NCBI GenBank assembly: GCA_900109895.1
Contig: FOBR01000014.1
Span: 1 to 64,000, forward strand
Direction of reading: 5' to 3'
From: a bacterium A37T11
Lineage (GTDB): Bacteria > Bacteroidota > Bacteroidia > Sphingobacteriales > Sphingobacteriaceae
DNA length: 64,000 bases
Within the stretch, counting starts at the first letter, position 1. Each line of letters starts with the position of its first letter. Shown here in pieces: positions 24,531 through 33,869 of the stretch. The translations under genes were made by a program, and so were the position numbers. The notes under the pieces were generated by a model. The model saw only the letters and a program-made list of their open reading frames with translations, made no database searches and was not told the DNA's origin.

Positions 24531-24716
24531 TTAATCCACCTTTTTATCCCTAGACCAGTTGCCCAAATGCCCATCCCATTGAATGCTGACGGACTTGGTT
24601 GTTACGTGTAGTTGCCGTGTTTCTTTTTGTGTTAATTGTTGCTGCTGGTGTTTTTGGGAAGCGCAGCTGGTTAGTGTCAGGACTATGATGGGTATGTAGT
24701 GTTTGAATTTTTTCAT
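24531..24716 (-). CDS. Small lipoprotein, 61 aa
   Basis: MKKFKHYIPIIVLTLTSCAS is a typical lipoprotein signal (Cys18), followed by about 40 polar residues with a run of glutamines and ending GHLGNWSRDKKVD. No known family recognised. The ATG at 24716 is chosen because the longer in-frame ORF adds non-signal-like residues encoded by the structured repeats upstream. Convergent with lacI. It may be co-transcribed with the FnIII gene through the two hairpin elements. Confidence 0.55.
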   Translation of the reverse strand: MKKFKHYIPIIVLTLTSCASQKHQQQQLTQKETRQLHVTTKSVSIQWDGHLGNWSRDKKVD

Positions 24717-24737
24717 GTTGATTGAATTTTTATGGTT

Positions 24738-24903
24738 ATTTAAAAAGTCCAATTGGTCTGGGGTCGAGCCTGCTTCGCAGCCAAGGCCCCCATCCCAACA
24801 GGACCTTTTAATTATCTCCTTATTATAAAATGGTGCTTTGGTCCGGGGCCGAGGCTGCTTCACAGCCAAGGTCCCCGTCCTCAAAGCCCCATTTTAATTA
24901 TCG
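24738..24903 (-). repeat. Two tandem structured elements with compensating outer stems
   Basis: Copies at about 24738-24817 and 24825-24903 share a core read on the minus strand as a GGGG/CCCC stem with GGCTG-loop-CAGnC inside. Each is closed by an outer stem whose sequence differs between copies yet still pairs: AAAAGGTCC/GGACTTTTT in one, AAAATGG..GCTTTG/CAAAGC..CCATTTT in the other. They could be tandem terminators or a structured RNA between the FnIII gene and the small lipoprotein gene. Confidence 0.65.
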
Positions 24904-25530
24904 GGCCAATAATGAGACCGTGTGCGACCAGTCTGCCAGCCCCATTCCATTACGGGCCCGCACACGTACCCAGTAGGTCACGCCGGCCATGACCGGAGCT
25001 ATGACGTTGCCCCGTGATACCCGCGTGGTCCTGATTTCACCCCAGATCACCTGGCCCGTGCTATCCAGCTCTGAGCTTATCTGGTACTCGTACTCCCATG
25101 CCCCTTTTATGGGCTCGAAGTCAAGCCTAAACTGACCCTTTTGCCGTCCATCCGTCAGGCTAACCCACAGCAGCACATCGGGAACGGCTAAGGATTTCAT
25201 CGGTGCAGCCAATACAAAGCCTGAGCTGGCAAGCGCATTGGCATCACCATTGGCGGTTACATTGACATAAAAGGCCATTTGTTTCATGGCCAGCACCAAG
25301 GCCGCTTTGCTGTTATTGCGCGCTGTTATTTCCAGCTTCCCTCCCGTTTCCTTTGCAGCTTCGTTCTTTATCCTGAACTCATCTGCCAATGCAGTATAAT
25401 CGGCAATGGGTATAGGCAGGTTTGGAAAGCTGTCATTGGCTGTCAGCGACTTGGCTGACTTGCCGCTTACGGTAGCCAGCAAATCTTCGCTGTACCGTGA
25501 ATAGTCTGTTAATACGCGTTGTTTTCGCAT
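24898..25530 (-). CDS. FnIII-domain protein, 210 aa
   Basis: N-terminal half is helical (LTDYSRYSEDLLATVSGKSAK; LADEFRIKNEAAKETGGKLE), and the C-terminal 85 residues form a fibronectin type III fold (FRLDFEPIKGAWEYEYQIS; VMAGVTYWVRVRARNGMGLA). No signal peptide. I recognise the architecture as common in Bacteroidota but know no assigned function. Downstream of the CHAP hydrolase on the same strand with a 41-bp gap, so probably one operon. Confidence 0.7.
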   Translation of the reverse strand: MRKQRVLTDYSRYSEDLLATVSGKSAKSLTANDSFPNLPIPIADYTALADEFRIKNEAAKETGGKLEITARNNSKAALVLAMKQMAFYVNVTANGDANALASSGFVLAAPMKSLAVPDVLLWVSLTDGRQKGQFRLDFEPIKGAWEYEYQISSELDSTGQVIWGEIRTTRVSRGNVIAPVMAGVTYWVRVRARNGMGLADWSHTVSLLAR

Positions 25531-25571: not shown

Positions 25572-26189
25572 TTATTTGTTTGAAACCCAGCCTGCTACTT
25601 TGTAAATTGTTTTGACCAGTCTCTTTTTCCGGTATACGCCTTCCCCAGGACCTGCACGGATCGGATTGCCAAAGCCATCCGCAGCTACGATGGAGCCGGT
25701 ATCGGAAGTATTGGCTTCTACCGTTATACACCACCTCTCGTTCCACGAATCGACAAACCCACAGTGGCCAATGCGTTTGAGCTCCTGGAAATAAATTCCA
25801 AACACATCTCCGGTTTGGGGGGTATGCCCACCCACGGCCCGAGCCCATATTACGCGCTTATCCGGAAACATGGTCGGGCTCCAGGCGGTCCTTGGCTCCG
25901 CCATTCCTGCCTTTGAAAAAACCCATGAAACGAAGGCACTGCAATAGGAATAGTTTCCTCTACGGCCCACCATGTGCAGGTATTGTTGCACCCTTGGCCC
26001 ATCGTTCTTTCCCGTCGCCTCCCTAACCCCCACCTCTGCGGAGTAAATACGGCGCAAAACTTCCCTACGTGCGGATTTTTCGCCTCTTTGGCCTTCAGGA
26101 TCTTTTACGACAACAAAACCCAAAACCCAAAAAAGCTCAATAAAACCAATCCCCAAAATGTACCTGAAATGATTTTTGCCTTCAAACAT
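25572..26189 (-). CDS. CHAP-like cysteine amidohydrolase with membrane anchor
   Basis: A 205-residue protein. An N-terminal hydrophobic segment (FRYILGIGFIELFWVLGFVVV) is followed by a CHAP/NlpC-like domain: YSYCSAFVSWVFSKAG has the nucleophile Cys, and IGHCGFVDSW the His. Such enzymes cut peptidoglycan cross-links or amide bonds. The ATG at 26189 starts inside the upstream gene, an 85-bp overlap in another frame; a later start would remove the membrane segment. Together with the membrane protein it resembles a lysis pair, but no phage genes are nearby. Confidence 0.65.
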   Translation of the reverse strand: MFEGKNHFRYILGIGFIELFWVLGFVVVKDPEGQRGEKSARREVLRRIYSAEVGVREATGKNDGPRVQQYLHMVGRRGNYSYCSAFVSWVFSKAGMAEPRTAWSPTMFPDKRVIWARAVGGHTPQTGDVFGIYFQELKRIGHCGFVDSWNERWCITVEANTSDTGSIVAADGFGNPIRAGPGEGVYRKKRLVKTIYKVAGWVSNK

Positions 26190-26527
26190 GATGAAATTCC
26201 TTTCGTTAATTCTCCTTGTACCAACCTGAGCAGCAACCACGCAGAAACTACCATTGCATCCATTACCAAAATCGACAATACACAAACGCTCAATATGCCC
26301 GTATCCAAAACTCCAGCTGTTGGATCAAACCATCTGATCAGTGGCCCACAAATCAGATATACGCCTGACAGGCCCAAGACCTGTCCTATCGCAATCAGGT
26401 ATTGCCATCCAGACCAGTACCAAAACGTCAACCAACGTATTCGTCTTACCGGATACCCGTCTATCCCTAAAACAGGAATACTTTGTTCACTTTTTCCACC
26501 CCAGGTGGAACCCAATTCTTTTTGCAT
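26105..26527 (-). CDS. Small multi-spanning membrane protein, 140 aa
   Basis: Soluble N-terminal 45 residues, then three or so hydrophobic segments (YLIAIGQVLGLSGVYLICG; TGILSVCVLSILVMDAMVVS; SGTFWGLVLLSFFGFWVLLS). No family recognised. It overlaps the start of the CHAP gene by 85 bp, which suggests coupled translation. Holin-like function would fit the neighbour but cannot be shown. Confidence 0.6.
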   Translation of the reverse strand: MQKELGSTWGGKSEQSIPVLGIDGYPVRRIRWLTFWYWSGWQYLIAIGQVLGLSGVYLICGPLIRWFDPTAGVLDTGILSVCVLSILVMDAMVVSAWLLLRLVQGELTKGISSCLKAKIISGTFWGLVLLSFFGFWVLLS

Positions 26528-26649
26528 TTTTTCTCCTTTCTTTTTTTAATATGATGAATCATGACACAAGGATAAGGAGGTCTTAATCGGTTTTATAAAC
26601 GTGCAACGAACTGCTACAAACTACCACCAAGTACCACACTTTCTGTTGC

Positions 26650-27225
26650 ACTTTGTCGTTTTTGCAGTACTGCATGAGGCGTTGGCATTCCCTCATGAGG
26701 CGTTTATATTACTGCATGTGGGCTATGTCATAAAATATAGCCCACATACAGTAAGGCATTTTAAAAAAACAGTACTAATTTTTTAAAATACCTTACTATA
26801 AAAACAATAAATATCAATACCAGTGCTATTTGATGAAATACAATGGGTACATGTTGTCCTGTATGTGCTGCATGTATTAAAACATATGCTGCATGTTCTA
26901 TTGATTTTAAAAAATGCAATACTTCAAAATTGACCTGTTTTACTACCAATGCCCCATGTATCCCTGTTAATGATGATGGCAGTTATCCATTCAGAAAATG
27001 GTGTAACACACTACCCTCTTGGTGTATAACAAGGATCAGATACATTACACCATAAGCCATTTGTATTACTGCATGGGCTACATGGTTTAAACCAAACAGC
27101 CCATGGTTCAAACCATTCGTCATATGGTCTGCACCATTCCGTGCATGTCTTACATCATCACGGACATGTCGTATGGCAACCTGCTCCTGCTGTTTTACAA
27201 ACCCATCAAACAGTACTGCAAAAAG
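26650..27225. repeat. Degenerate tandem array with 21-bp period
   Basis: ATG (or a one-mismatch form) recurs at exact 21-bp steps: 26851, 26872, 26893, 26914, 26956, 26998, 27082, 27103, 27124, 27145, 27166. A second phase holds 26674, 26695, 26716. Three consecutive units (27082, 27103, 27124) are 14-bp dyads of form ATGGTnnnnACCAT. Other inverted repeats include TGTGGGCTAT/ATAGCCCACA. Read on the minus strand in one frame with one stop, the array gives heptad-like peptides rich in His. It could be an operator/iteron array or a decayed heptad-repeat gene. Confidence 0.7.
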
Positions 27226-27227
27226 CC

Positions 27228-27605
27228 CTATTTCTTTTTAGCTTTTCCAAAACGGTGGGTACCTTTCCCCTGATCCGGGTATTCATCCATCAGTTTTATG
27301 ACATCTGTTTTTTTGAAGTAAGACGTGTTTCCTATCTTTTTACACGGCTTTAATAGGGTGGGTATCACATTACGATATAAGGAACTGCGTTCCCTTCCCA
27401 AGTAGTTGGCTACTTCCTGGACGGTCATCAACTCAGGGAGATCTTGCTGTGCCTTCCGTTTTTCACGCAGGTATTCACGCAGTTCATGGATAAAGGGACG
27501 CAAATCATCATCCAGTAAGATCGTGGCCAAACTGACCAGTTTTAGGAGAAGTTCAATGATTTTTAACAATAATGGGGTGATCATGATGCTGTAGATTAGC
27601 ACCAT
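27228..27605 (-). CDS. HTH (excisionase/MerR-like) DNA-binding protein, 125 aa
   Basis: The first third is hydrophobic/helical (LLLKIIELLLKLVSLATILL), then a charged helix (REYLREKRKAQQDL), then a winged-HTH of the excisionase type: LMTVQEVANYLGRERSSLYR...IGNTSYFKKTDVIKLMDEY. Such domains bind DNA or act as directionality factors. Start could also be 27584. The 21-bp array begins right at its stop codon, downstream, so the protein is a natural candidate to bind it; that is inference. Confidence 0.65.
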   Translation of the reverse strand: MVLIYSIMITPLLLKIIELLLKLVSLATILLDDDLRPFIHELREYLREKRKAQQDLPELMTVQEVANYLGRERSSLYRNVIPTLLKPCKKIGNTSYFKKTDVIKLMDEYPDQGKGTHRFGKAKKK

Positions 27606-28044: not shown

Positions 28045-28078
28045 AAAATATAACTTAAAGTGTTAAAAATAGGTTTTT

Positions 28079-28093
28079 ATAAGCGTAGCTTAT
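28079..28093. promoter_or_regulatory. Palindromic candidate operator
   Basis: ATAAGCGTAGCTTAT: 6-bp arms around GTA, with a second half-like word (TGTAGCTTG) about 20 bp on. It lies between the XRE gene and the peptide gene. Candidate XRE binding site by position. Confidence 0.45.
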
Positions 28094-28183
28094 ATTATAT
28101 AAATGTAGCTTGTTTACTATATACCAGCATCTTACGATCTTTGTTTTTGTCTTTAATGCAGAAGACGAACACATAAAAAAATC

Positions 28184-28366
28184 ATGAAAAAAGCATTTAA
28201 ACATCACCCGGAAAATGTAAAACTGATCATTCCGGCAGAAATGACCGAAATGACTGCAGAAGCACAGGAGCTCATCACAGGTGGAACGCGGAAACCAAAT
28301 AGCAAGGTTTTTTTGGTAGCCCAGGCCATGATCTTCTACTTTACTTTTGGTATCCCGCTGTTTTAA
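28184..28366 (+). CDS. Double-glycine leader peptide (bacteriocin/RiPP-like precursor candidate)
   Basis: A 60-residue peptide. Residues 1-34 look like a C39-peptidase leader ending MTAEAQELITGG, with hydrophobic residues at -12 and -4 and Gly-Gly at -2/-1. The 26-residue remainder starts TRKPNSK and ends in a hydrophobic segment (VFLVAQAMIFYFTFGIPLF) with no Cys. The C39 exporter encoded 0.8 kb away on the same strand is the obvious processing enzyme. The rhomboid gene converges on it. I cannot name a family; reality rests on the leader motif and context. Confidence 0.55.
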   Translation: MKKAFKHHPENVKLIIPAEMTEMTAEAQELITGGTRKPNSKVFLVAQAMIFYFTFGIPLF

Positions 28367-28382
28367 CATCTCCTGCACCATG

Positions 28383-29041
28383 TCAATGTTCATTTTGATG
28401 GATGATTTCAAGTACCAACGATGGATGCAGGAGCAATGCGTACACCAAGCCGATAAAACGCCGGTCAAATGAGGTCCGGCGGCTCTACCGGTCTTGAGCG
28501 TTGCCAACACTATCAATATACCCAAGAAAGTCAAAGAGAGTTGGTACCCACATATAAATGGTGTCTTGCTCCCCGGTTTCATCGGTCCCTCCATGGGATA
28601 ATAGAGGCATGCAAACACAACCAATGCACACGTAAATGCAGACATTCCATAAATCGATACACCAGCATGCCTTCGGTATTTCAAACTGGTCAACCCATTA
28701 ACGATTACCACTACACCCACCCAAAACAGCAGAAACAAGCAGATGCCGCCATATGGTCCAAAATCACTTTTCAAAAAATATTCAATATCATCCATGAGGT
28801 AAAAAGCAAAACCTATATTCATCAGCAAATGCTTCCATCCCGCATGGATAAGTCCTGCCGTAAACAAGGTATACCTGTGCTTCTCATGGAGTACATCTTC
28901 TGGCCTGCATACCAGGTTTGCAAATAACGGAGGATGATAGAAAGCAATAATACTGGTCATACATACTAACAGCGTTACTCCATAAGTCAGTGGCGATTCA
29001 TTAAGTGAAGGCAATACAGAAAGGATAGATAGGGCTTTCAT
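28383..29041 (-). CDS. Rhomboid-family membrane protein with probable frameshift
   Basis: Rhomboid-like intramembrane protease. HAGWKHLLMN (residues 66-75) is the family TM2 signature; the Ser motif reads GVSIYGMS instead of GxSGA; His191 is in HLTGV. Directly after that the frame leaves the family: restoring one T in a T-run near 28463 gives VFIGLVYALLLHPS and a stop at 28383-28385, a normal 219 residues. As it stands the frame runs to 28055 with unrelated residues. Either a recent mutation or a homopolymer error. Confidence 0.65.
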
Positions 29042-29149
29042 CTTATTTCATACCATAGTATAATTTATGGTTAAATTTAAGAATATTTCAGATAGCTAAC
29101 AATTTTTTTGTCATAATTATCATCCATTTATGAAAATACTAACAAATTC

Positions 29150-31339
29150 ATGAAAAAGCACCGGCAACATGATCTGAAAGATTGCGGGGCCGCCTGCCTT
29201 GCCGCTGTGGCCGATCACTATGGCAAGTACGTTCCATTGGCATCGATCCGCTTGCTGACGGGCACCGACCGAAATGGGAGTAGTCTGGCCGGATTGCGGT
29301 ATGCAGCAAAAAAACTTGGTTTTCAAGCTCAGGCCGTACAGGGGAGTTATACCGGTCTTCAAAAAGCCATTTTGCCCGCTATTGTTCATTTAAAATTATC
29401 TGAAATGGATCATTTTGCGCTCGTTTTCCAAGCGGGCGCAAAAAATCTCCGTCTGATGGATCCAGTCAACGGGAAGCTAAAAACGGTAAAAACAAGTGCT
29501 TTTTTTCAACAGTGGGGCGGACATGCGTTGTTACTTCAACCCGGACCCACTTTTTGCAGCCAGGGTAAAGCACCTTCCCTATTCAGCCGCTTTACCCTGC
29601 TGCTCAGACCCCACCGGCATACCTGGCTTAAAGCACTTGCCGCTACCGCCTGTTGCAGCCTGCTCTCCTTTGGAAATGCCATTTTTGTCCAACTATTGGC
29701 AGACCGTGTCCTTGCCAAAGGCAATAGCGCTCTTTTAATGCCGCTCGTTTGTTTGTTTAGTGCGTTGCTTATTATCCAAACCGTACTTAGCGTCCTAAAA
29801 AACCTGGCCGTTTTAAAGACTGGCCGCGCTATTGACCACCAACTCATACACGGTTATTGCCGCCATTTACTCCAATTACCTCAACGGTTTTTCGACCAAA
29901 TGCAGACCGGGGAGATCATCTCACGAATCAATGACGCTTTTAAAGTGCGTTACTTTGTCAATGATGTACTGGTGAACTTAAGCGTGCCGCTATTTGTCAT
30001 ACTTATCTCGCTCACGTTGCTTATGGGTGTCCATTGGCGCCTGGGCGTTGTCATCCTCGCCGCTCTACCCATATATATGATCGTTTATCGTATCAGTTAT
30101 TTTATCCATGGCAAAGTGCAGCGTCGTATCATGGAACAAGATGCCGAGCTGGATGCTCAATTGACCGAGAGCCTGCGTGCTATCCGCACAGTAAAACAAT
30201 TGGGACTAGCGCTCCCTATCTCGCTCAAAACAGAAAGCCTGCTTTCCAACCTGCTCCACACCTCCTCTATTTCTGGCAAAAATACCATCTTTACAGATGC
30301 CAGTACCGAATTTCTGGCACAAGCCATCAGCCTTGGCCTGTTATGGCTGGGCAGCCATCTGGTTTTGGAAGGGGGGCTCAGCCTGGGCGAACTGCTCTCC
30401 TGCTATGCGATACACGGCTACTTCAGCCGATCGGCCAGCCAGCTTATCGGGTTAAATAAAAGCTTACAGGACGCACGCATAGCTATGGAAAGGCTCTATA
30501 GCATTCTGGAACTTCCTCCAGACGAAGACCCCACGGCTACGCTATGTCAACCGGATCACCTGGCCGGTATCTGGTTTGAAAAGGTGACCTTTGGCTATAA
30601 CCCGCGTCAACCCTTGTTATCTGAGGTCAATCTGCATATTCCCGCCGGGCAGATCACCTTGATCACAGGCCCATCCGGATCCGGAAAAAGTACCCTTTTC
30701 TCCCTCCTTCTCCAACAATATGTACCAGATGGCGGACAGATTCGATTTGGCATTTACGCCAGTTCGCTCATCAGCCATGAAGGTTTATTACGGCATATAG
30801 CCGTAGTACCACAACATACAGCGCTTTTTTCGGGGACCATTGCCGATAATATGACTAACGGAATTGGAGAGCCTGATGCAGATCGTATCCTTCAATTATG
30901 TAACCAGTTGGGCCTGCTGCCCTTTATAGAAAGCCTGCCTCTCGGCTTAGACAGTCCCGTAGGAGAAAATGGCCAGTTGTTCTCCGGCGGCCAGCGACAA
31001 CGCCTGTCCATTGCCCGGGCGTTATACCGGCAACCGCAAGTTTTACTCCTGGATGAACCGACGGCAGCACTGGATGAGGATGCCGAGCAAGACGTACTAC
31101 GATGCTTAACTGAAGCTTGCCGCCAAGGAATGACTATCGTCATCATCAGCCACCGCAATGCCTGCCTGACCATCGCTGACCATATACTCGAGGTCAGCCA
31201 AGGTCACATCCTACCCCGCACACCACAGACCGAATATAACAACATCATTCATTCACCCCTCAGCCCGCCCACCCCTGCCGATGAAACCCGCGGCCAGGCC
31301 GGCGGGCTGATACAAAAAAGAAAGGAAAAGCCCTATTAA
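29150..31339 (+). CDS. C39-peptidase ABC exporter (PCAT type)
   Basis: A 729-residue peptidase-containing ABC transporter that cuts a double-glycine leader and exports the peptide. Peptidase C39: Gln6, Cys12 (DCGAAC), His88 (MDHFALVF), Asp104. Membrane domain from about 160 to 440. ATPase: Walker A GPSGSGKST, signature FSGGQRQR, Walker B VLLLDEPTAALD, H-loop ISHR. All catalytic residues are present. No HlyD or TolC partner is encoded nearby, unlike many such loci in this phylum. The likely substrate is the peptide at 28184. Confidence 0.93.
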   Translation: MKKHRQHDLKDCGAACLAAVADHYGKYVPLASIRLLTGTDRNGSSLAGLRYAAKKLGFQAQAVQGSYTGLQKAILPAIVHLKLSEMDHFALVFQAGAKNLRLMDPVNGKLKTVKTSAFFQQWGGHALLLQPGPTFCSQGKAPSLFSRFTLLLRPHRHTWLKALAATACCSLLSFGNAIFVQLLADRVLAKGNSALLMPLVCLFSALLIIQTVLSVLKNLAVLKTGRAIDHQLIHGYCRHLLQLPQRFFDQMQTGEIISRINDAFKVRYFVNDVLVNLSVPLFVILISLTLLMGVHWRLGVVILAALPIYMIVYRISYFIHGKVQRRIMEQDAELDAQLTESLRAIRTVKQLGLALPISLKTESLLSNLLHTSSISGKNTIFTDASTEFLAQAISLGLLWLGSHLVLEGGLSLGELLSCYAIHGYFSRSASQLIGLNKSLQDARIAMERLYSILELPPDEDPTATLCQPDHLAGIWFEKVTFGYNPRQPLLSEVNLHIPAGQITLITGPSGSGKSTLFSLLLQQYVPDGGQIRFGIYASSLISHEGLLRHIAVVPQHTALFSGTIADNMTNGIGEPDADRILQLCNQLGLLPFIESLPLGLDSPVGENGQLFSGGQRQRLSIARALYRQPQVLLLDEPTAALDEDAEQDVLRCLTEACRQGMTIVIISHRNACLTIADHILEVSQGHILPRTPQTEYNNIIHSPLSPPTPADETRGQAGGLIQKRKEKPY

Positions 31340-31445
31340 ACCCCGATTTATCCCTACCCAACAAGATTTTAGCTGGCGGCGTTTTAAAAAAATTGACAAG
31401 CCACCTGCAGATTGTGACCATCCCATCCCAGCTGCCAAACAGGCC

Positions 31446-32312
31446 GTGTTGGAAGACGATACAGCCCAGGTCCTTTGCCAACGCATTACGGGCGAAAATT
31501 TCAGCATGCGCCAGTTTTCCATAAAACCGGTCAGTGGCGCTATATCGTTTCCATTTAACTGCCTGCACCGAAGCCTAATACTCGTCTATGCCCTGAAAGG
31601 CCCGTTGATAGCTCGTTTTGTGCCCGATACAGAACCGGTCATCCTTCCCTCCCGCTTTTATTTGGGAACCTTGCTGGTGCCCGGCAGCTATCAGCTGGAG
31701 TTGCCCGCTACAGACAGTTCCTATCTATATGTCCAGATCCGCTACCGCTACCTGCGGTTTCTCAGTAAAAAGAATAAGGCACTCCGTCCCTTATGCCGGG
31801 CTTTTGAAGAAAGCCCCAGCCAACCCATTTACTTCCAGATGGCCTACATTGACCAGGAGGTATTAAAACTGTTTTCGCGCATCAAAGCCCTCGGTCTATC
31901 AGACAACCATTTGCCCATCGCTATTAAACACTACCTCGTTGACCTCTTGCAACACTATGGACAGCAACTCTTACGGTCAGACCCCATCGCCTATTTAAGA
32001 AGCGAAGAAAAAGTCCTGCTATTGATGCAGCATCTGCAGCTGCACTATACCGCACATGGTATAGAGAAACTGGACACCTTAAAAGCGCAGTTTTACTTAT
32101 CGCGAAGTACACTCACCCGGGTATTTGAGGATATGTATGGTTGCTCCATAGGCTATATGGTCACCTACTTGCGCATGCACCAGGCCAAAAGACACATTCG
32201 GGATGGGCTCACGATAAAAAAGTCCGCCCAGCTCGTCGGATTTGAAAATGAATTTGCATTTAGCCGGGCTTATCATTCCTTCTTCGGCCATTCCCCACGC
32301 CAAAAAGATTAA
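31446..32312 (+). CDS. AraC-family regulator (N-terminus uncertain)
   Basis: C-terminal AraC HTH pair: LDTLKAQFYLSRSTLTRVFEDMYGCSIGYMVTYLRMHQAKRHI, then KKSAQLVGFENEFAFSRAYHSFFGHSPRQ. The N-terminal 200 residues may be a sensor domain. The first usable start is GTG at 31446, but the frame stays open to about 31310, just inside the end of the ABC gene, with protein-like sequence and an ATT where an ATG would be expected, so the true start may be non-canonical or mutated. It follows the exporter and may regulate it. Confidence 0.8.
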   Translation: MLEDDTAQVLCQRITGENFSMRQFSIKPVSGAISFPFNCLHRSLILVYALKGPLIARFVPDTEPVILPSRFYLGTLLVPGSYQLELPATDSSYLYVQIRYRYLRFLSKKNKALRPLCRAFEESPSQPIYFQMAYIDQEVLKLFSRIKALGLSDNHLPIAIKHYLVDLLQHYGQQLLRSDPIAYLRSEEKVLLLMQHLQLHYTAHGIEKLDTLKAQFYLSRSTLTRVFEDMYGCSIGYMVTYLRMHQAKRHIRDGLTIKKSAQLVGFENEFAFSRAYHSFFGHSPRQKD

Positions 32313-32483
32313 AAATTGCCCAACGGGTTACTTTCTTGCCTAATGCCTTGAAATTATGAGCCAATCCGCCATGTTTTCAGGTCAAAATTGTGTGTTCCTT
32401 TGTAGTGTTAAGTCTGCCCAATGAAAGGATAGTTTTGACGACAAAAAATGAGAGATATATATAAGGCATAAAATAATAAAAAT

Positions 32484-33869
32484 ATGAACGCATCGGCAGA
32501 CATCGGGATTACCACCAGCAACTATCGGGATTACCTAAAGAAAAGATGTGCGGCCTGTAAGGCGGATGACAAACTGCTTTACATTATGGAGCCAGTAGTA
32601 AAACCTGGATGGATGCTGTTCATTAGTTTGACCCTACTTGATTGGGAGACATTGATCGATCCGATCCTGGATATTTTAGTAGCCGAGCATGTGTCTTTTA
32701 TCTTACCTAAAAACCGGGAGGTCCATAATCAGATTAACAGTGATGGATTGGGTGGGCAATTTACTGGGAAGGTCATCACCATATTTCCCAACAGCGAGTT
32801 GCAGCTTACGTATTTATTGGAACGGTTAGTATCTGTGACCCGGACGGCCAAGGGTATCCGCATACCCAAAACTTATTATCTCGGTGGCCAGGTATATGGT
32901 GGCTACGCCACTTCCCCTTCTGGCTTATATAAGGAAGCGATCTTTTCATTGCCAAAAATCCATCCGTTTGGTGAGAAGATCCACCACCTATCAGCCGGAA
33001 AACGACTGATTGCGGGTTCGTTTATTCCTGTACAATACATCCGCAGCGGTGCAAAAAGCGATATTTATAAAGGGGTATCCATCCGCAAGCCATTTATGCA
33101 ATGGTGTTTTATTAAAAAGGGTAAGATTAACTCCGCCGCTGATGAAACCGGTAGGGATATCTATGATCGGCTGCGGTGGGAACACGAAGTACTGCTAAAA
33201 TTGAAAGGATTTCCATTTGTTCCAAAAGTCTATGGAATGAGCAGTGATGCGGAGCATATGTACCTGATCACTGAGTTTATTGATGGAGTTACCCTTTCTG
33301 ATAAACTGAAGGATTTGCTGGAAGGAAAAACCTATAAAGAGGCTGACCTTGCCATTAAAATAGAAGTATTGGATATTTTTAGTGACCTTCTCTATTCCAT
33401 GCAACAGTTACACGACCTAGGAGTGGTTCATCGGGACCTCACCGACAGCAATGTGCTCTTTAGCAAAAAAGGTGGTATTCATCTGGTGGATTTTGAATTG
33501 GCTTATGACCTCCAAAATGACCGGCCTGATCCTGCTTTTGTATTTGGCACATTGGGCTATGTGTCTCCTGAACAGATGTCATATGCCAGACCCACTATCC
33601 AGGAGGATCTGTATTCTCTGGGCGCATTGTTGTATGCCGGCCTGACTGGCCATCAACCCAAAAACACATTACTTAAATCTAAAACCCACGCGCTCCAAAG
33701 GCTGACAGACCAAACCGGTTCATCCGGACTCTCGGCCATCATTCGGAAATTATTGAATGATACACCTGATGAACGGTTACCGTTATCTCAGGTAAAAACA
33801 GTTCTCGTAACTGAAAAACTGGCCATTTTAGCTGCTATTGTCGCAGGAAAGGAGGTCTATCATGCCTAA
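32484..33869 (+). CDS. LanKC-like lyase/kinase protein without cyclase domain
   Basis: A 461-residue protein resembling the first two domains of class III lanthipeptide synthetases. The N-terminal lyase-like part has [18 protein letters not shown] and [12 protein letters not shown]. The kinase part has Lys in the WCFIKKGK strand, HRDLTDSN (316-323), DFE (336-338) in place of DFG as in LanKC enzymes, and [10 protein letters not shown]. The LanC-like cyclase that normally follows is missing: the next gene starts within its last codons. It may phosphorylate and dehydrate Ser/Thr of a peptide, or act as a plain kinase. Confidence 0.75.

What the first reader, a model, noticed from the sequence alone, without database searches (positions are those of the whole stretch)
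26650..27225. About 580 bp of degenerate 21-bp periodic DNA beside an HTH gene
ATG falls at the same 21-bp phase in 11 of 16 consecutive units from 26851 to 27166, with three further units in a second phase shifted by 9 bp. Three adjacent units are 14-bp dyads exactly two helical turns apart, as expected for cooperative protein binding or iterons. Alternatively it is a decayed gene of heptad repeats, since the minus strand is nearly open in one frame with His at a fixed heptad position.
Basis: seen in the sequence. Interest (0 to 1): 0.75.

Follow-up and report, generated by a model that had tools for sequence, protein, structure and literature searches.

The report
Two-helical-turn DNA array beside Fn3 gene
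The odd repetitive stretch is real: it is a non-coding run of 27 half-decayed, mirror-symmetric 21-letter units, exactly two turns of the DNA helix each, and similar runs with quite different letters sit in front of the same gene family in many related bacteria, which points to an unrecognised kind of long protein-docking platform on DNA.

Summary
The element is 566 bp (26659-27224; 27 units less one base) of exact 21-bp phasing (lag-21 z 11.3, 0 of 1000 shuffles) with dyad-symmetric units. It lies between an excisionase-like HTH_17 gene and a small operon (membrane protein, CHAP, Fn3-like "F0", lipoprotein). Two further 566-bp copies and other 21-bp arrays of unrelated sequence occur in the same genome; all 7 non-coding periodic arrays in 0.84 Mb have period 21. 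Among 60 F0 loci chosen by protein alone (own genome, Sphingobacterium, Olivibacter, further genera) 41 have a period-21 array upstream. Sequence differs from array to array; pitch and, in 30 of 38 arrays, dyad symmetry persist. Orthologous arrays (93% identical, 769 bp) have no indel, or only whole-unit 21-bp indels, whereas DNA beyond F0 has 12. Stops are as frequent as column-shuffles predict, and GU/AC counts and unit covariation give no RNA signal: not a heptad gene, not RNA hairpins. Best explanation: a long, helically phased operator on which a dimeric DNA-binding protein polymerises to control the F0 operon. Binding by the neighbouring HTH protein is inferred; HTH-array co-variation was not significant.

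The parts
26659..27224 (.). 21-bp phased dyad array, 26 full units + 20 bp, non-coding
26659..26672 (+). left terminus TTTTTGCAGTACTG, inverted copy of the right terminus
27211..27224 (-). right terminus (CAGTACTGCAAAAA on +), 3 bp from the HTH stop codon
27228..27605 (-). HTH_17 / excisionase-like winged-helix gene (family F5): long N-terminal helix + wHTH
   Evidence: low-confidence model, pLDDT 67.5
26528..26658 (-). spacer between array and operon; such spacers show 10-bp-spaced direct repeats as a group
26105..26527 (-). small membrane protein, about 3 hydrophobic segments by eye (family F3, holin-like)
25572..26285 (-). CHAP-domain protein (family F1), PHROG endolysin match; true start probably downstream of the listed TTG
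24898..25530 (-). F0: helical N-half + fibronectin type III domain, the conserved companion of the arrays
24531..24884 (-). short lipoprotein-like ORF after F0 (internal Met, lipobox by eye)

Best explanation
The stretch is a non-coding DNA platform: about 27 dyad-symmetric protein-binding sites spaced exactly two helical turns (21 bp) apart, so that all sites face the same side of the helix. A homodimeric DNA-binding protein, most likely the excisionase/BldC-like winged-helix protein encoded immediately upstream, is proposed to bind cooperatively and coat the array as a filament, switching the downstream F3-CHAP-Fn3(F0)-lipoprotein operon. Each F0 locus has its own unit sequence, hence its own specificity; only pitch and dyad symmetry are held constant. 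SHOWN: phasing, dyads, lack of coding and RNA signals, conservation of pitch with divergence of sequence, and association with F0 in many genera. INFERRED: protein binding, identity of the binder, cooperativity, and the direction of regulation.
For: Phasing z 11.3. Unbiased scan of periods 10-39: 7 of 7 non-coding periodic arrays in 0.84 Mb of the own genome are period 21. Period-21 array upstream of F0 at protein-selected loci: 10 of 20 in the own genome plus 1 downstream, 12 of 14 in named Sphingobacterium/Olivibacter loci, 19 of 26 further non-duplicate loci in 8 genus labels (strand taken). Background: 4 non-coding arrays (5 with one under an ORF) in 820 kb outside F0 neighbourhoods. Dyad symmetry p<0.05 against column permutation in 30 of 38 arrays. 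31 arrays, 13.6 kb: 4 phase jumps, all near array edges, at mean unit identity 0.31-0.61. Orthologous arrays: 769 bp at 93.1% identity with 0 gaps, against 12 gaps in 789 bp beyond F0; the S. pedocola / S. alkalisoli pair differs by exactly 21 + 21 bp. Stops 39 against 43.2 expected and 310 against 324.1; within-unit covariation z 0.9, GU 380 against AC 363. Arrays away from F0 resemble a module array of the same genome (C17a, C8a to C34a r 0.81-0.88; C17b to the C52 array r 0.77; median 0.31), as a trans-acting specific binder would predict. HTH_17-type gene upstream at most array-bearing loci.
Against: No binding data. HTH gene not found next to 2 of 12 own-genome upstream arrays (L266, C17c) and 4 of 12 named-genome arrays (L285, L286, L291, and L289, whose HTH-like ORF has no Pfam match). 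Regulator-array Mantel r 0.13, p 0.10 with one member per group (0.23, p 0.0075, with a homologous pair left in). F0 loci without an array exist: L278 and L290 with an intact HTH gene, and 9 of 20 in the own genome with none within 1.7 kb on either side (counting L276, whose nearest lies at 3.1 kb, as one without). Dyad symmetry not significant in 8 of 38 arrays. Array borders were drawn by lag-21 identity, which favours slip-free stretches. The three 566-bp copies fold better than column-shuffles on both strands (z -4.7 to -8.0), which leaves room for a cruciform or inverted-duplication role. Sensor/response-regulator genes (His_kinase, REC-LytTR, REC-HTH_17) also sit at some loci, so the binder could be another protein.
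Confidence: 0.5

Rival explanations
1. Architectural element: phased, flexible DNA that wraps around or is bridged by a general nucleoid protein or gyrase, acting as a topological insulator or silencer without a cognate regulator.
For: Pitch is conserved while sequence is free; several non-module arrays lie between convergent genes (C17a, C8a, C17b, C15b by reading); arrays also occur without F0 in another genus.
Against: Strong array-specific dyad consensus; module and satellite arrays of one genome share sequence; tie to one gene family.
Confidence: 0.17
2. LytTR-type regulation: the LytTR/response-regulator genes seen at some loci bind repeats of 21-bp pitch; the array multiplies such sites.
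For: LytTR next to C17a, REC-LytTR + His_kinase upstream of the L287 array; LytTR sites are read as 9-bp repeats with a 12-bp spacer = 21 bp (PMC6193735 passages).
Against: LytTR sites are paired direct repeats, not long dyad arrays; LytTR was matched at 2 of the 18 neighbour proteins scanned with Pfam (one of the 18 scanned in both); unit sequences differ at every locus.
Confidence: 0.1
3. Expansion-contraction element: a fast-evolving minisatellite that arises by unit duplication, without a function of its own or as a length-tuned rheostat of the operon.
For: Near-identical units in genus g14 arrays; whole-unit indels between orthologues; arrays diverge fast (L285/L286: F0 92.5%, array about 65-71%).
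Against: Units are 31-61% identical yet keep phase over hundreds of bp; only period 21 appears among non-coding arrays, not a spread of periods; dyads persist.
Confidence: 0.12
4. RNA element: a transcribed chain of hairpins in the leader of the operon.
For: Array lies on the same transcript strand between HTH and operon; MFE below dinucleotide shuffles (z -6.3 and -10.2).
Against: No within-unit covariation and GU 380 against AC 363; folding excess is on both strands; no Rfam match; an RNA has no need for a 21-nt pitch.
Confidence: 0.06
5. Decayed or recoded gene of heptad repeats.
For: One frame has few stops in some arrays; 21 bp = 7 codons.
Against: Stops in all six frames of the three 566-bp copies; not fewer than column-shuffles; a long antisense frame over L289 (0 stops) has 4 stops in its relative L291; a decayed gene would not keep phase.
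Confidence: 0.05

Closest known systems
BldC (MerR-like wHTH) operators, Streptomyces
   Same: small winged-helix protein, cooperative head-to-tail filament on repeats, sites of variable number (PMC5859096 and PMC11963761, passages)
   Different: BldC repeats are about one turn apart and direct, few per site; here 7-37 dyad units two turns apart, each locus with its own sequence. The 10-bp-spaced repeats just 3' of the arrays are closer to BldC sites.
Excisionase/RDF filaments (lambda Xis, RdfS)
   Same: HTH_17/excisionase-like protein that polymerises on DNA (PMC7145599, PMC11963761, passages; family match)
   Different: no integrase or attachment site noticed at these loci; array far longer than the three Xis sites
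LytTR direct repeats
   Same: 21-bp pitch (9 + 12), same face of helix (PMC6193735, passages); LytTR genes at some loci
   Different: two direct repeats upstream of -35, not a dyad array
REP/BIME and prokaryotic satellites
   Same: intergenic, repeated, palindromic DNA (PMC3733652, search listing only; PMC6749651, passages)
   Different: those families are defined by sequence; here the pitch is constant and the sequence is not
Iterons and plasmid centromeres
   Same: tandem sites spaced by whole helical turns (recalled)
   Different: no replication or partition gene seen here; about two dozen F0 loci per chromosome

Membership tests
Heptad-repeat protein gene | open reading frame through the repeats | tested here: not met
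   stops in all six frames of three copies
Heptad-repeat protein gene | selection against stop codons | tested here: not met
   39 vs 43.2 expected; 310 vs 324.1
Structured non-coding RNA | compensatory changes / wobble bias on one strand | tested here: not met
   covariation z 0.9; GU 380, AC 363; Rfam 0 matches
Phased operator array | sites at whole-turn spacing held by selection | tested here: met
Phased operator array | dyad-symmetric sites | tested here: met
   30 of 38 arrays at p<0.05; window copy p 0.002
Phased operator array | binding by a specific protein | not testable with these tools
   needs EMSA/footprint
BldC/Xis-type filament site | wHTH protein of that fold encoded nearby | tested here: inconclusive
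   HTH_17/excisionase match; missing at some loci; model of low confidence
LytTR repeat site | LytTR protein and paired direct repeats | tested here: inconclusive
   LytTR protein found at only some loci; units are dyads; the LytTR consensus itself was not scanned
Transposon/MITE | terminal inverted repeats with target duplication | tested here: inconclusive
   inverted termini shared by three copies; no target duplication by eye; unit sequences of other arrays unrelated
Iteron origin / plasmid centromere | replication or partition gene beside the repeats | tested here: not met
   neighbours are HTH, membrane, CHAP, Fn3

The most novel reading that the evidence does not exclude
A class of regulatory DNA defined by pitch rather than by sequence: long arrays of dyads exactly two helical turns apart, each with a private recognition sequence, paired with an Fn3 gene family and a cognate polymerising regulator, so that one bacterium carries more than ten mutually orthogonal operator arrays, some of which also act in trans on satellite arrays elsewhere in the chromosome.
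Probability: 0.35. Interest if true: 0.9.

Novelty: new variant of a known kind. Interest (0 to 1): 0.78.

Why it matters
A repeat family whose period is conserved while its sequence is not would escape every sequence-based repeat search. If bound as proposed, it gives a natural set of orthogonal, long cooperative operators in Sphingobacteriaceae, and a direct way to ask how protein filaments on DNA read helical phase. It also draws attention to a multi-copy, lysis-like gene module (membrane protein, CHAP hydrolase, Fn3 protein, lipoprotein) of unknown role.

Tried and rejected
Heptad gene, RNA hairpins, iterons: rejected as above. Mobile element: three own-genome copies share exact length (566 bp) and inverted termini, but no target duplication is visible and other arrays are unrelated in sequence; set aside, not excluded. 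A universal TA centre: true for several own-genome arrays but not in general. Regulator-array co-evolution: positive only while homologous loci are included, not significant after thinning. DNA search of relatives with the raw element found nothing (0 of 59 other genomes); a sequence-only profile found period-21 relatives, which are selected for period 21 by construction and therefore not used as evidence for the period. Orthologue pairs L289/L291, L285/L286 and L283/L288 had diverged too far for a meaningful indel count. Literature: the searches gave no paper that by its listing treats 21-bp arrays of this kind or this module; most subscription journals are not held. Rows dropped: one search left out 6 of 40 spacers (L261, L276, L270, L272, L283, L299); one search left out 6 of 40 arrays (L261, L276, L299, L270, L272, L266) and added four non-module arrays; one search did not include L293 and L294. 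In one search L271, L275, C15a, L281, L282 and L288 were left out of the 20 pairs.

Full report
WHAT IS THERE. The region 26650-27225 has a lag-21 identity of 0.477 against 0.265 in shuffles (z 11.3, 0 of 1000), with strong multiples, and nothing else in the window comes near it. The element runs from 26659 to 27224: 566 bp, 26 full 21-bp units plus 20 bp, starting TTTTTGCAGTACTG and ending CAGTACTGCAAAAA. The same genome (unnamed, 5.09 Mb) holds two more copies of this unit type (C17:49744-50309, C8:2775-3340), each also exactly 566 bp. Pooling 81 units gives CATATGCAGTACTGCATATG+G, a perfect 20-bp palindrome plus one base; dyad centres lie at 10.5 and 21.0 of the unit, one helical turn apart.

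NOT CODING, NOT RNA. All six frames of the three copies contain stops. In 12 module arrays the least-stop sense frame holds 39 stops against 43.2 expected when letters are shuffled within each of the 21 columns (z -0.8); in the 12 Sphingobacterium/Olivibacter arrays 310 against 324.1 over the three sense frames (z -1.3). The other seven arrays had fewer stops than expected over all frames on both strands together (z -4.4 and -4.7), which I read as a sign of super-periods rather than of one frame. Within-unit complementarity does not exceed column composition (total z 0.9) and wobble-type mismatches are balanced (GU 380, AC 363), so the dyads behave as DNA sites and not as hairpins. The 566-bp copies do fold better than shuffles, but on both strands. 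Rfam gives nothing.

THE PERIOD IS THE CONSERVED THING. An unbiased scan of periods 10-39 over 0.84 Mb of the own genome (part of it chosen because it holds the two sister copies) found seven non-coding periodic arrays, all of period 21; apart from the three 566-bp copies their unit sequences differ widely. Other periods appeared only inside ORFs (one further period-21 array lies under an ORF). In 31 delimited arrays (13.6 kb) a phase model sees four phase jumps, all near array edges, although units are only 31-61% identical to each other; borders were drawn by period, so this is not free of selection. Orthologues are a cleaner test: S. olei and S. alkalisoli arrays align over 769 bp at 93.1% without a gap, while 789 bp beyond F0 at 89.7% carry 12 gaps; S. 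pedocola differs from S. alkalisoli by exactly one unit lost and one gained (gaps 21 and 21). More distant pairs could not be aligned well enough.

THE COMPANION GENE. Beside the array lie an HTH_17/excisionase-like gene (27228-27605) and, on the other side, a membrane protein gene, a CHAP gene, an Fn3-like gene called F0 here (24898-25530) and a short lipoprotein ORF. F0 has 28 matches in the own genome. Of 23 F0 loci examined, F3 (membrane) occurs in 14, CHAP in 16, F5 (HTH) in 11 and a lipoprotein with a C-terminal hydrophobic segment in 13; the last looks like a unimolecular spanin and the set like a lysis cassette, by eye and by PHROG endolysin matches. F0 itself models well (pLDDT 91) as a helical half plus an Fn3 domain.

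PROTEIN-SELECTED TEST. Loci were chosen by F0 protein only. Own genome: 20 loci, period-21 array upstream in 10 and downstream in one more; in one of the ten, L272, the array is overlapped by an ORF. Named genomes (genome contigs): 14 loci in Sphingobacterium and Olivibacter, array upstream in 12. Family search: 28 loci, of which two repeat named ones; array upstream in 19 of the 26 others and downstream in one. In sum 41 of 60 have one upstream, and each of these has period 21. Background in the own genome is 4 non-coding arrays (5 with one under an ORF) in 820 kb. A genome of the same family without an F0 match (G016) showed no non-coding array in 200 kb. F0 is in 23 of 151 family genomes, 9 of 25 genera.

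DYADS IN GENERAL. Dyad symmetry exceeds column permutation at p<0.05 in 30 of 38 arrays, with different sequences in each. Arrays without F0 in the own genome match module arrays: C17a and C8a the window's array (r 0.81, 0.88), C17b the C52 module array (0.77), against a median of 0.31; C15b and C8b have no such partner among those compared. This is what a specific trans-acting binder would give.

WHO BINDS. An HTH gene precedes most arrays, but not all. Regulator and array similarity correlate only while homologous loci are kept (r 0.58, n 20; 0.23, n 18) and not after thinning (r 0.13, p 0.10, n 14). Some loci carry LytS-type kinases, a REC-LytTR or a REC-HTH_17 protein. LytTR repeats are read as 9 bp plus 12 bp spacer, a 21-bp pitch (PMC6193735, passages); BldC and Xis/RdfS wHTH proteins polymerise on DNA (PMC5859096, PMC11963761, PMC7145599, passages). 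The spacers 3' of the arrays show 10-bp repeats (0.335 against 0.270, 0 of 300 shuffles; upstream control 0.258), which may be the sites of the wHTH protein itself. I therefore hold cooperative binding by a cognate dimer as the best reading at about 0.5, with the binder's identity open.

LIMITS. No expression or binding data. Membrane segments and lipoboxes were judged by eye.

Noticed in passing
window 26528-26658 and 34 spacers 3' of arrays: 10-bp-spaced direct repeats (lag-10 autocorrelation 0.335 vs 0.270 in shuffles), e.g. L312 TTTGTACCGT repeats; a possible second binding element.
   Followed up: partly
L067, L071-L075, L171, L186-L189 (genus g14): Near-identical 21-bp arrays TTTATATTAYYGYACCCGYGA at several intergenic loci of several genomes, not near F0 as far as seen and mostly not dyad-symmetric.
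   Followed up: partly
own genome, 28 F0 matches: A lysis-cassette-like module (membrane protein, CHAP, Fn3, lipoprotein with C-terminal hydrophobic segment) in about two dozen chromosomal copies without phage structural genes in sight.
   Followed up: partly
L225 (G388 contig 6), positions 19 and 927: Two non-coding period-21 peaks in an unselected contig of another family of the class.
   Followed up: no
window 28055-33869: Rhomboid ORF (Pfam), a large ABC-transporter-like ORF at 29150-31339, AraC-like 31446-32312 and kinase-like 32484-33869 next door (the last three named by eye); possibly a peptide export locus.
   Followed up: no
L005 6347-7159: Membrane-bound LytTR protein beside the C17 copy of the array.
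   Followed up: partly
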